Shown here in pieces: positions 21,939-25,771 of a DNA stretch of 29,754 nt. The position numbers were made by a program, and so were the translations under genes. Position 1 is the stretch's first letter. Every line of letters starts with the position of its first letter. The notes beneath the pieces were generated by a model. The model saw only the letters and a list, made by a program, of their open reading frames with translations. It was not told the DNA's origin and searched no databases. Origin of the DNA: Syncephalis plumigaleata. Lineage: Eukaryota > Zoopagomycota > Zoopagomycetes > Zoopagales > Piptocephalidaceae. The stretch spans positions 1 to 29,754 of the forward strand of contig JAIXMF010000156.1 of the NCBI GenBank assembly GCA_025201365.1, written 5' to 3'.

Positions 21939-23772
21939 ATGGGTAAGCTATTGGAAGATTGAACGTTCATTACTCTCGTGATTAATGGCGTATTCTCTCT
22001 CTTTCTCTCTCTCTATTGGAAGATTCGCAAACTTGTCCGTTATGCTTGAAAACAGTGGCACCCTCCAATTATGAACGACATTACCGTAAAGAATTGGCAG
22101 CACTTGCCATACCTCAACTACCGCAACAAGTAGCATCAACAACTGGAAAGAGTGATAGTACAAGGTAAGTTCAATATTCCATATCTCATAGTCATCAATA
22201 TCCATGTTAATCGTTCGATGATAGTCAACTAGGTAAACGTGGTGCGGCCATAGCGGCAAAGAGTCGTATTCTTGGTGAATCAATATCTACAAAGGAAACA
22301 CCTGAACAAGCAAGTGTACTCATCCTATTTACTCTATTACTGTACTAATTGAATGTAATATTAGGTTATTAGTAAAGTAAAGCGTCAGATTGATCAGCGT
22401 GACAAATGGTTGACATCAGGTAATCATCATTAGTATTAGCAAGAATGACAATATATATATATGTGCTAATCTATTCAATTAGATGGCACTTCCAACAATA
22501 ACAACAACAACAACAATGATACTAGTATAAACAACGTTAGTAGTAATTATGAACAAACTGCTACCGATTTCTTATTATTACAAAGTGGAGCATCATCCGA
22601 GACAATAGGTAGATATATAGATGTAGATTAGAATACATAAAGTATGTCATCACATTGACAAGTCATCTAACATAACATTTGATGTAATGATCAAGAATCG
22701 ACGTGTTTCATGTGTGGCGCGGCATTATCCGGAGATCTAGTACAGATTAATGCACATATTGATCGATGTCTAGCTAATCCAGAAGCATCCTCTGTCCTGG
22801 TGTGTATTATATTGATTACAAATAGAATACAATACAATCACTAACATATATATGTATATATATATATATTGAATATTAGACAACTACTGCTAGTACCACT
22901 GCTGCTACTGCCGCTACACCTTCTCAGTCCACTGATACAGACATGACATTTGAAGAGTATACATGGGCGGGTCAGACACGCGTACGAGTTACTTCAATGC
23001 TCGAGGGAGGTGCTGCAGGTAATATTGTAATAGTAACATACTGCTCATTATTGCTTATTTAACATAAATGCATTGCCTTTATAGCACTTGCCAGTAATAC
23101 TGGTCGTCGTGTTGAAGAAGACACCAATGAAGAGTTGGACATTGATTTGGATGATACGGAACAATATGGTGCACAACAATATCCTTTCTAAATGATAAAC
23201 ATTGCTGTATATATATATAGTTGATAGATAATAGTTATTACTTAACCATATAGCACGTATACCGAAGATGACGTACGTCGAGTAATGAACGAAGAAAGTA
23301 TGGAATCTACTGCCACGTATGTATATACCAAGATATATTATGTCATCGATTGTATAATACCAATGACTAAATGTATGATGATTAGTGAAACACCAATGGA
23401 TACAGAAGCATTGCCCGTAACCACCTTTAATCTAGCATCACCTGTCATTACTGATGATCTGGCTCGAGCCAACCTACTAATTGCTTCACTTAAGGATCGT
23501 ATTAGACAACAGGTAATCTAATAGGCAGACCATTTATTTGTTTATTTACTTTTATTAATATCATGATGATGATTACTACTTAGGAACAACTCATTTCAAA
23601 TACTGGCAAATGTTTAATCTGCATGGACAGTTACAAAAAACCGACTACCTCGATTGTATGCTGGCATGTCTACTGCGAGACATGTTGGTTACAAAGTCTA
23701 GGTGCCAAGAAAGTATGTCCTCAATGTCAGACCATTACGCAACCGGCCGATCTACGTCGTATTTACTTTTGA
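21939..23772 (+). CDS. RNF220-like RING E3 ubiquitin ligase
   Basis: Probable E3 ubiquitin ligase of the RNF220 family. Eleven exons, join(21939..21942,22023..22164,22225..22309,22365..22419,22483..22608,22696..22799,22880..23018,23085..23178,23257..23316,23386..23512,23584..23772), give 374 aa. A first zinc element, CPLC at 6-9 with His21, is followed by RGAAIAAKSRI. A C2HC finger (C141, C144, H158, C162; INAHIDRC) resembles ubiquitin-binding UBZ fingers. Then comes the family block EEYTWAGQTRVRVTSMLEGG. The C-terminal C3HC4 RING has C322, C325, C338, H340, C343, C346, C357 and C360, with CWHVYCETCWLQSLGAKK and the family end DLRRIYF. The first coding exon is only ATG plus G. Intron 3 may be GC-AG. 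Intron 8 has U12-type AT-AC signals; using them gives QYTEDDVRRV exactly as in relatives. Substrates cannot be inferred. Confidence 0.92.
23179..23256 (+). other. U12-type AT-AC intron in the RNF220-like gene
   Basis: This 78-nt intron starts ATATCCTTTC, a full match to the minor-spliceosome 5' site RTATCCTTT, and ends in AC. Near the 3' end, TTACTTAAC (23238-23246) differs at one base from the U12 branch consensus TTCCTTAAC, with the branch A 11 nt from the end. Splicing AT to AC joins CA to G, making Gln250 and continuing the conserved sequence. No GT donor in the area gives a usable phase. Confidence 0.88.
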
Positions 23773-24308: not shown

Positions 24309-24403
24309 CGTAAAAATATATAGAAGAATGAGAAAGTTGTATTGCGAAGCGGTGATTTCTCGATTTTCTTTTCTCTTCCGTCTCCCTCCACTACAACCTG
24401 AAT
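24309..24403. promoter_or_regulatory. 95-bp bidirectional promoter, MZM1/ATP12
   Basis: Only 95 bp separate the two start codons, including both 5' leaders. The right half is pyrimidine-rich on the plus strand (TTTTCTTTTCTCTTCC at 24364-24379). Both products are mitochondrial assembly factors, so a single regulatory element probably serves both. No specific binding site is named. Confidence 0.6.
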
Positions 24404-25613
24404 ATGTTGTTGCTACGTTCCTCTTTGACGCGTATTACCACGCAATACCGTCCAAATGCCTCAAAGACAGCATTACGACTTATGGCCACTAGTGTAGTAT
24501 GTCGAAATGACAGTGCAAGTAGGAACAAGTATATGTATACCTAACTGAATCTATTACTAACACATATGACATTAGCTAAATCTATTAAACGATTCTGGAA
24601 ACAAGCGGATATCAAGGAAGAAACAGGTAGGAGTAGCAGAACTAGACAATACTGATAGTATACAAGGCACTGTATTAATGCAAACATAGATGGTATTCAA
24701 GTATTACTTGATAAACGCTCATTAAAAACACCCGGTGGACAAGTATGTCGTCTACCAACAAGTGATATTTGCAGTGCACTAGCTGTAGCAGGAGAATGGG
24801 AAGGAGCAGTAGAACAATTGAAACCACATGGACTAACCATGGTAAGTATATATATATATATATAGACTACATTTACATGGCTAACTATACTATTACTGCT
24901 ACTATTGTTACTATAAAGACATCTATTGTTGCTCGTGCAATTGATACATTTCATGATAATGAGGAACGAACCAAGGCTATCGATAAATTAGTAGCATTCC
25001 TACATAGGGATACACTTTGGTAAGTAATACATATTAATTTAATTGTATATCTAGCAATGTTAATAATGAACTATACTTAGTTATCAACATGATCATCCAA
25101 GTACATTAGTTGAACTACAATCATTGCATTGGGAACCATTAGTAAACTGGGCACGACAACACTATCAAGTTGAACTAACAGTGACCGATAGTATTATGGG
25201 TATACAACAACCGAAGTCTACTGTTGATAGATTACGAGCTGTAGTAACTAGTTTCTCGCCATTGAAACTTGCAGGTAAGTGCCACTATTGATACTATGAT
25301 TATTACTATTTACTCATTATACTGCTGTTACTAGCCTTTGAACAAGCAGTTCTAGCCTCAAAATCATTTATTATTGCATTGGCATTGAGTGAACGACACA
25401 TCAATGTACAACAAGCAGTAGAGGCATCTCAAGCTGAAGTACTCGCCCAGATTAAACAATGGGGTATGGTAGAGGATGGTAAGAAGTGTAATACAATATT
25501 GAATAACAATGAAATGAAGTATAATGATTACTTGTTATTTAGGACATGATTTGGATTTCGAATTACTACATCAACAATTGGGTGCTGCATCATGTGCCTT
25601 TATAACTCGGTAA
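24404..25613 (+). CDS. ATP12: Mitochondrial F1-ATPase assembly factor ATP12
   Basis: Matrix chaperone that binds the F1 alpha subunit and allows its assembly into ATP synthase. Seven exons, join(24404..24518,24576..24626,24690..24841,24919..25019,25081..25274,25335..25478,25543..25613), give 275 aa. Residues 1-38 are Arg/Ser/Leu-rich without acids until position 36, as expected of a mitochondrial presequence. The family domain starts KSIKRFWKQ and has LLDKRSLKTPGG, LAVAGEWE, LKPHGLTM, DTLCYQHDHPS, and the C-terminal FEQAVLASKSFIIALALSE. The end of exon 1 is a choice between GTAGGA (24519) and an earlier GTGTAG; both keep phase and only the presequence length changes. It shares a short promoter with the MZM1-like gene and converges on RBM22. 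Confidence 0.95.
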
Positions 25614-25771
25614 TAAACAGTGACATTTATTCATCTTCTATAGAATGCAATAATGGTTACTCTTTCATTCTTTAACATGTTAATTCTTATGTACTGATCC
25701 ATATAGTGTTGGATCTATATATATATAAATATATATTAGTATATTAGTATATACATCGTAGATTATTAGTA

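What the first reader, a model, noticed from the sequence alone, without database searches (positions are those of the whole stretch)
23179..23256. A minor-spliceosome (U12, AT-AC) intron in a fungal RNF220-like gene
The intron opens ATATCCTTTC, ends AC, and carries TTACTTAAC with its branch A 11 nt from the 3' end. AT-AC splicing restores the conserved QYTEDDV run in phase, and no major-type site does so. Most fungi (Dikarya such as yeasts) have lost U12 splicing; it is known to persist in some early-diverging lineages. About 70 other introns in this window look major-type, so this is a lone survivor in a ubiquitin ligase gene.
Basis: partly seen in the sequence, partly recalled or inferred. 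Interest (0 to 1): 0.78.

Follow-up and report, generated by a model that had tools for sequence, protein, structure and literature searches.

The report
Minor-spliceosome intron in a mycoparasitic fungus
A fungus that parasitises other fungi appears to carry a genuine intron of the rare 'minor' class in a ubiquitin-ligase gene, but it is not a lone survivor: the same genome holds other such introns and at least part of the machinery that removes them, as is already known for some other early-diverging fungi.

Summary
Window 23179-23256 is a U12-type AT-AC intron: ATATCCTTT 5' site, TTACTTAAC branch site with its A 11 nt from the end, AC 3' site, phase 2, in an 11-exon RNF220 gene (374 aa). 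Of 17 frame-keeping GT/GC-AG alternatives, none keeps the conserved run. A second copy on contig C329 keeps every splice element. Gene models of two other Zoopagales seem to read into a like intron at the same codon.

'Lone survivor' is wrong. The genome (Syncephalis plumigaleata, from an identical protein on a contig of equal length) gives 77 matches to a U12-intron pattern against 20 for the reversed control. Four other introns tested (xanthine dehydrogenase, VPS35, ESS2, prefoldin 5) rejoin conserved proteins without a gap. U6atac, U11, U11/U12-25K and -65K genes are present; U12 and U4atac were not found, by searches of limited sensitivity.

Minor introns are in print for several early-diverging fungi, so this is a new member of a known kind. 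A possibly newer side result: the 65K protein of Syncephalis, Basidiobolus and Absidia lacks the C-terminal RRM that binds U12 in humans.

The parts
23179..23256 (+). U12-type AT-AC intron, 78 nt, phase 2
   Evidence: same splice elements in a second copy at C329:1337196-1337273
23179..23187 (+). 5' splice site ATATCCTTT (matches RTATCCTT; pairs by inference with U11 and U6atac)
   Evidence: the rule RTATCCTT is quoted in PMC2846911 (passages)
23238..23246 (+). branch-site element TTACTTAAC, branch A at 23245, 11 nt from the intron end
   Evidence: consensus TTCCTTRAY recalled
23255..23256 (+). 3' splice site AC (CATATAGCAC; no pyrimidine tract between branch site and end, by eye)
21939..23772 (+). 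RNF220-like E3 ubiquitin ligase gene, 11 exons: 21939-21942, 22023-22164, 22225-22309, 22365-22419, 22483-22608, 22696-22799, 22880-23018, 23085-23178, 23257-23316, 23386-23512, 23584-23772 (last codon is the stop)
   Evidence: Pfam RNF220 91.6 bits and RING; best relative Syncephalis fuscata, 61% identity
22310..22364 (+). GC-AG (GCAAGT...ATTAG) major-type intron in the same gene
23085..23178 (+). exon upstream of the U12 intron (ends ...GGTGCACAACA)
23257..23316 (+). exon downstream (starts GTATACCGAAGATGACGTA)

Best explanation
It is an ordinary U12-dependent (minor) intron in the RNF220 gene of Syncephalis plumigaleata. By inference from the human system, U11 pairs with ATATCCTTT and U12 with the TTACTTAAC branch element in the U11/U12 di-snRNP; U6atac then replaces U11; the branch A at 23245 attacks 23179, and 23178 joins 23257. 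The major spliceosome has no GT/GC-AG pair here that would keep the conserved protein run. Shown: sequence elements, frame, homology, a second copy, other U12-type introns and part of the machinery in the same genome. Inferred: splicing itself, the snRNA pairings, and the presence of U12 and U4atac genes.
For: Intron anatomy and frame. The spliced protein runs through the junction without a gap against 11 of the 13 relatives aligned; the other two are the read-through cases below. The copy at C329 matches at 1123 of 1125 exon columns and 697 of 714 intron columns; in this intron the changes lie outside the 5' site, branch site and 3' site. Annotated proteins of Syncephalis pseudoplumigaleata (QQYPCIAID, end) and Thamnocephalis sphaerospora (QQYPLRGENIALSDDIV) carry Y-P after QQ, as expected if an ATATCC intron was missed by the gene caller. 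Own genome: 77 pattern matches against 20 for the reversed control; XDH, VPS35, ESS2 and PFDN5 introns confirmed; U6atac 33.7 bits, cut-off 33; U11 53.7 bits, cut-off 39; U11/U12-25K E=1e-15; 65K.
Against: No RNA reads were available. U12 was not found (family search; patterns; scans), nor U4atac. U11 was below its cut-off (35.7 bits) in the whole-genome search, where one of 14 control genomes also rang below cut-off; it passed only in the permissive local scan. U6atac passes by 0.7 bits. The 65K protein lacks the C-terminal RRM. The S. fuscata protein reads QQYTEEDV (P0001), so whether that species has the intron is unknown. The DNA of the two read-through species was not seen.
Confidence: 0.95

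Rival explanations
1. An AT-AC intron removed by the major (U2) spliceosome, as for the few U2-dependent AT-AC introns known in animals (recalled).
For: AT-AC termini alone do not decide the class; the gene's nine other introns have GT or GC donors.
Against: The 5' site is the U12 string ATATCCTTT, a near-consensus U12 branch element lies 11 nt from the end, there is no pyrimidine tract, and the genome has U11 and U6atac.
Confidence: 0.02
2. The minor spliceosome uses the AG at 23253 (AT-AG, 75 nt), giving GAQHTYTEDDV, as main or alternative product.
For: It keeps the frame and both conserved runs.
Against: Branch A to 3' end would be only 8 nt; it adds a residue that 11 of the 13 aligned relatives lack there (the other two are the 8-column insert of Thamnocephalis and the truncated S. 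pseudoplumigaleata model).
Confidence: 0.03
3. Assembly error or dead gene: the stop-containing stretch is not an intron.
For: The gene stretch of the window is near-identical to part of C329, so the window contig may be redundant.
Against: The two copies agree in every splice element and in 1123 of 1125 exon columns; relatives carry the same protein and read-through traces.
Confidence: 0.01
4. One reading: the last U12 intron in a genome that has lost the rest.
For: It is the only match to the full motif in the window.
Against:: other U12-type introns elsewhere in the genome.
Confidence: 0.01

Closest known systems
U12-type (minor) introns of early-diverging fungi: Rhizophagus irregularis (205), Basidiobolus meristosporus (249), Phycomyces, Rhizopus (PMC10639083 passages; PMC2846911 passages)
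   Same: Same class of 5' site, branch element and termini; PMC10639083 places Basidiobolus in Zoopagomycota, the phylum of Syncephalis
   Different: Different order (Zoopagales); the NCBI dump now gives Basidiobolus its own phylum; RNF220 and Syncephalis do not occur in the main text of PMC10639083
AT-AC U12 introns of animals and plants (recalled)
   Same: ATATCCTT...CCTTRAC...AC layout, spliced by U11/U12/U4atac/U5/U6atac
   Different: Short intron (78 nt); the 65K protein here lacks the C-terminal RRM of the human one
RNF220 (Pfam PF15926)
   Same: Pfam RNF220 and a C-terminal RING matched
   Different: Only the intron is of note; intron positions in other orthologues could not be read here

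Membership tests
U12-type intron | 5' site RTATCCTT | tested here: met
   ATATCCTT at 23179-23186
U12-type intron | branch element close to TTCCTTRAY near the 3' end | tested here: met
   TTACTTAAC at 23238-23246, 8 of 9 letters; A to end 11 nt; consensus recalled
U12-type intron | termini AT-AC or GT-AG | tested here: met
   AT...AC
U12-type intron | no pyrimidine tract before the 3' site | tested here: met
   CATATAGCAC after the branch element, by eye
U12-type intron | removal restores a conserved protein | tested here: met
U12-type intron | spliced in vivo by the minor spliceosome | not testable with these tools
   no RNA reads held
Minor spliceosome in this genome | U6atac snRNA | tested here: met
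   C1:977157-977339, 33.7 bits, cut-off 33, E 1.7e-5, rings in 0 of 14 control genomes
Minor spliceosome in this genome | U11 snRNA | tested here: met
   C329, L045:1501-1698 minus strand, 53.7 bits, cut-off 39; 35.7 bits and below cut-off in the filtered genome search
Minor spliceosome in this genome | U12 snRNA | tested here: inconclusive
   not found: family search, patterns (none above its control), local scans
Minor spliceosome in this genome | U4atac snRNA | tested here: inconclusive
   not found: family search; a pattern built as complement of the U6atac gave 4 places: U6atac itself, a tRNA, and two near-identical places of which one was scanned
Minor spliceosome in this genome | U11/U12-25K (SNRNP25) | tested here: met
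   Pfam Ubiquitin_4 71.2 bits, cut-off 22.8; PDB 25K chain E=1e-15
Minor spliceosome in this genome | U11/U12-65K (RNPC3), two RRMs | tested here: inconclusive
   N-terminal RRM and VPKLYTQVLHLMNKMNLPPPF motif present, a Rhizophagus irregularis protein named 65K at E=3.6e-47; C-terminal RRM absent
RNF220 | RNF220 domain and RING finger | tested here: met
   91.6 and 51.9 bits

The most novel reading that the evidence does not exclude
The minor spliceosome of Syncephalis, and perhaps of Basidiobolus and some Mucorales, is remodelled: its 65K bridge protein keeps the U11-facing half (N-terminal RRM and the VPKLYTQVLHLMNKMN motif) but has lost the C-terminal RRM that holds U12 in humans, and U12 may have diverged with it, so that U11 and U12 are bridged in another way (for example by an RBM41-like protein) while U12-type introns such as this one are still removed.
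Probability: 0.3. Interest if true: 0.62.

Novelty: new member of a known kind. Interest (0 to 1): 0.4.

Why it matters
It adds Syncephalis, a mycoparasite, to the fungi with U12-type introns; no held paper names Syncephalis together with 'minor intron' or 'spliceosom'. Gene models of two related species seem to read through the same intron, so counts of minor introns in these fungi that rest on annotated introns may be too low. The shortened 65K protein makes it testable whether the U12-binding half of the bridge is dispensable.

Tried and rejected
Lone-survivor reading: rejected. Major-type alternatives: 17 frame-keeping GT/GC-AG pairs, none keeps the conserved run.

U12 snRNA: Rfam RF00007 (0 matches; 42 of 1338 first-look candidates scored; rings in 0 of 14 control genomes); TGAGTAAGGAAAATAAC with up to 2 mismatches (14 matches, control 25); YGCC..AACT..GTAAGG (6, control 17); CCTTAC..TARTT..GCR (73, control 96). 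Rfam scans of 8 of the 14 places, 2 of the 6 and 2 of the 73 gave no U12. U4atac: RF00618 (0 matches; 48 of 522 candidates scored); pattern complementary to the found U6atac (4 matches, control 1); scan of 2 of these 4: a tRNA and no U4atac.

A Branchiostoma gene model (P0080) reads QHPL at the junction codon; I could not interpret it.

Full report
What is there. The sequence 23179-23256 reads ATATCCTTTC...TTACTTAACCATATAGCAC. The gene around it has 11 exons (21939-23772) and gives 374 residues, with Pfam RNF220 at 91.6 bits and a RING finger at 51.9 bits. Read without splicing, the frame stops right after QQYPF. The upstream exon ends with two bases of a codon, so the intron is phase 2. Frame-keeping donor/acceptor pairs for introns of 30 nt or more in the two-exon stretch were enumerated: 2308 in all, 17 of them GT/GC-AG, none of which keeps both conserved runs; 76 pairs with other termini do. 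Of these 76, AT-AC at 23179/23256 gives exactly the run seen in relatives; AT-AG at 23179/23253 and AT-AC at 23181/23246 insert residues; four neighbouring cuts give the same protein with unusual termini. The full motif, in a pattern written after seeing it, was absent from 300 of 300 first-order Markov shuffles of the window. The 8-letter 5' motif alone is weak evidence (6 found, 2.77 expected).

Whose genome. The 65K protein read from contig C223 is 100% identical over 328 residues to a protein of Syncephalis plumigaleata (P0101) whose contig is 1,947,659 bases long, the length of C223. I conclude that the organism is S. plumigaleata, order Zoopagales, phylum Zoopagomycota. Among the 100 RNF220 relatives the closest is Syncephalis fuscata at 61% identity; no near-identical S. 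plumigaleata protein is among them, for reasons I did not establish. The window is contig C64; its RNF220 stretch has a near-identical copy on C329 (1,413,401 bases), so the window is probably a second haplotype or redundant contig. The two copies match at 1123 of 1125 exon columns and 697 of 714 intron columns, and this intron differs only in its middle.

Sign from relatives. In an alignment of the query and 13 of the 100 hits, 11 of the 13 pass the junction without a gap. The other two are gene models of Zoopagales in which QQ is followed by Y-P: Thamnocephalis sphaerospora reads QQYPLRGENIALSDDIV, and S. pseudoplumigaleata reads QQYPCIAID and ends. Y-P-C needs TAY CCN TGY and Y-P-L fits TAT CCT TTR, that is, the start of an ATATCCTT intron at the same place read as exon. 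S. fuscata (P0001) and a sequence on a 1056-base contig (P0003) read QQYTEED, which says nothing on whether they have the intron.

Not a lone survivor. A strict pattern gave 5 matches against 0 for the reversed control; two pairs of the 5 are near-identical copies, and the window's own intron does not fit this pattern. A wider one (RTATCCTT, 26-56 bases, MCTTRAY, 6-12 bases, YAS) gave 77 against 20. The 77 collapse to 50 distinct sequences, 25 of them AT...AC; four of the 50 were cut off in display, so their ends were not read. The control was not collapsed, because its matches are not listed, so no exact number of true introns follows, and the pattern's end limits bias the share of AC ends. 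Of 32 loci put into, 31 gave output, one of them the window's own intron and several of them copies of one another. I picked four whose rejoined exons I recognised and tested those four: xanthine dehydrogenase (C351, AT-AC, E=3e-15), VPS35 (C1:1283546, GT-AG, the AG lying 7 bases beyond the pattern match, E=5.3e-16), ESS2 (C112:1718102, AT-AC, E=1.7e-7) and prefoldin 5 (C27, AT-AC, E=9.1e-12). In all four the best alignment runs through the junction without a gap. The other loci were not tested.

Machinery. U6atac: one match just over the Rfam cut-off (33.7 bits against 33), with the GGAGAGA core and a T-run end. U11: 35.7 bits in the filtered genome search, under the cut-off of 39, where one of 14 control genomes also rang below cut-off; 53.7 bits in the permissive scan of that locus, with an insert of 71 bases in the first hairpin and AUAAUUUUUU as Sm-like site. 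U11/U12-25K: two adjacent exons, spliced 189 residues, PDB 25K chain at E=1e-15. U11/U12-65K: found on C223, with a Rhizophagus irregularis protein named 65K at E=3.6e-47. The PDB search alone did not single out 65K: its best hit was RBM41, a paralogue, at 2e-7, with RNA-binding protein 40 (another name of 65K, recalled) at 8e-5. U12 and U4atac were not found by any search. The tool warns that its U12 search rang nowhere and does not show absence. I take this as a limit of the searches, not as loss.

A side result. The 65K protein of S. plumigaleata ends in the genome at a stop codon before any C-terminal RRM, and by eye the following roughly 780 bases hold no RRM-like frame. Of the 120 relatives listed (of 161 found), 107 have a C-terminal RRM and 13 do not, by a profile made from seven of them and a threshold of 15 bits; in 7 of the 120 the marker motif was missing, so there a hit anywhere counted. 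Among the 13 are two Syncephalis, two Basidiobolus, two Absidia and a Gongronella; three others are marked partial by their source, so the 13 are not all true losses, and most are unchecked gene models. Rhizophagus irregularis, Geosiphon, Cladochytrium and Rhizopus microsporus keep a C-terminal RRM. In humans this domain binds the U12 3' hairpin and the N-terminal half binds 59K (PMC12084885 passages; PMC11039992 passages). A single-RRM relative is known in Drosophila (Miso), but that one keeps the C-terminal RRM. Basidiobolus meristosporus has 249 minor introns (PMC10639083 passages), so minor splicing may work with a short 65K. I found no mention of this shortening in the passages I saw; I saw two listings and passages of four papers, none in full, and 'fung' does not occur in PMC11039992.

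Relation to what is known. U12-type introns in fungi are in print for Rhizopus, Phycomyces, Rhizophagus and Basidiobolus. PMC10639083 counts Basidiobolus as Zoopagomycota; the NCBI dump gives it a phylum of its own. No held paper has Syncephalis together with 'minor intron' or 'spliceosom', and only PMC10639083 has 'minor introns' with Zoopagomycota. The library lacks most subscription journals, and that survey's supplementary lists were not read, so this intron may be listed there.

Verdict.

Noticed in passing
L064 (C223:1035500-1043500), minus strand: U11/U12-65K gene ends before the C-terminal RRM; the same is seen in annotated proteins of S. fuscata, two Basidiobolus, two Absidia and a Gongronella, while 107 of 120 listed relatives have that RRM.
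   Followed up: partly
L045:1501-1698 (minus strand), C329: U11 snRNA with an insert of 71 bases in its first hairpin.
   Followed up: no
L006:1501-1683 (minus strand), C1: U6atac longer than the model in two stretches (53 for 12 and 42 for 25 positions) and with a changed segment (GGCGACC where the model has AGCACUC), which would call for matching changes in U12 and U4atac; patterns built on this found neither.
   Followed up: partly
window 21939-23772 and other contigs: The RNF220 stretch has a near-identical second copy on C329, and many of the U12-pattern matches recur on small contigs, as in a heterozygous assembly.
   Followed up: partly
window 22310-22364: GC-AG intron (GCAAGT donor) in the same RNF220 gene.
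   Followed up: no
genome-wide: The 22-mer CCTTACCTCTTTGTAGTTTGCG makes up 22 of the 73 listed matches, so it probably belongs to a dispersed repeat.
   Followed up: no
P0080 (Branchiostoma floridae gene model): Reads KPQHPLRDII where other Branchiostoma RNF220 models read KPQYRERDII, at the codons of the intron position; perhaps another mis-predicted intron there.
   Followed up: no
window about 24400-25615: Next gene downstream looks like the mitochondrial ATP synthase assembly factor ATP12, by eye and recall only.
   Followed up: no
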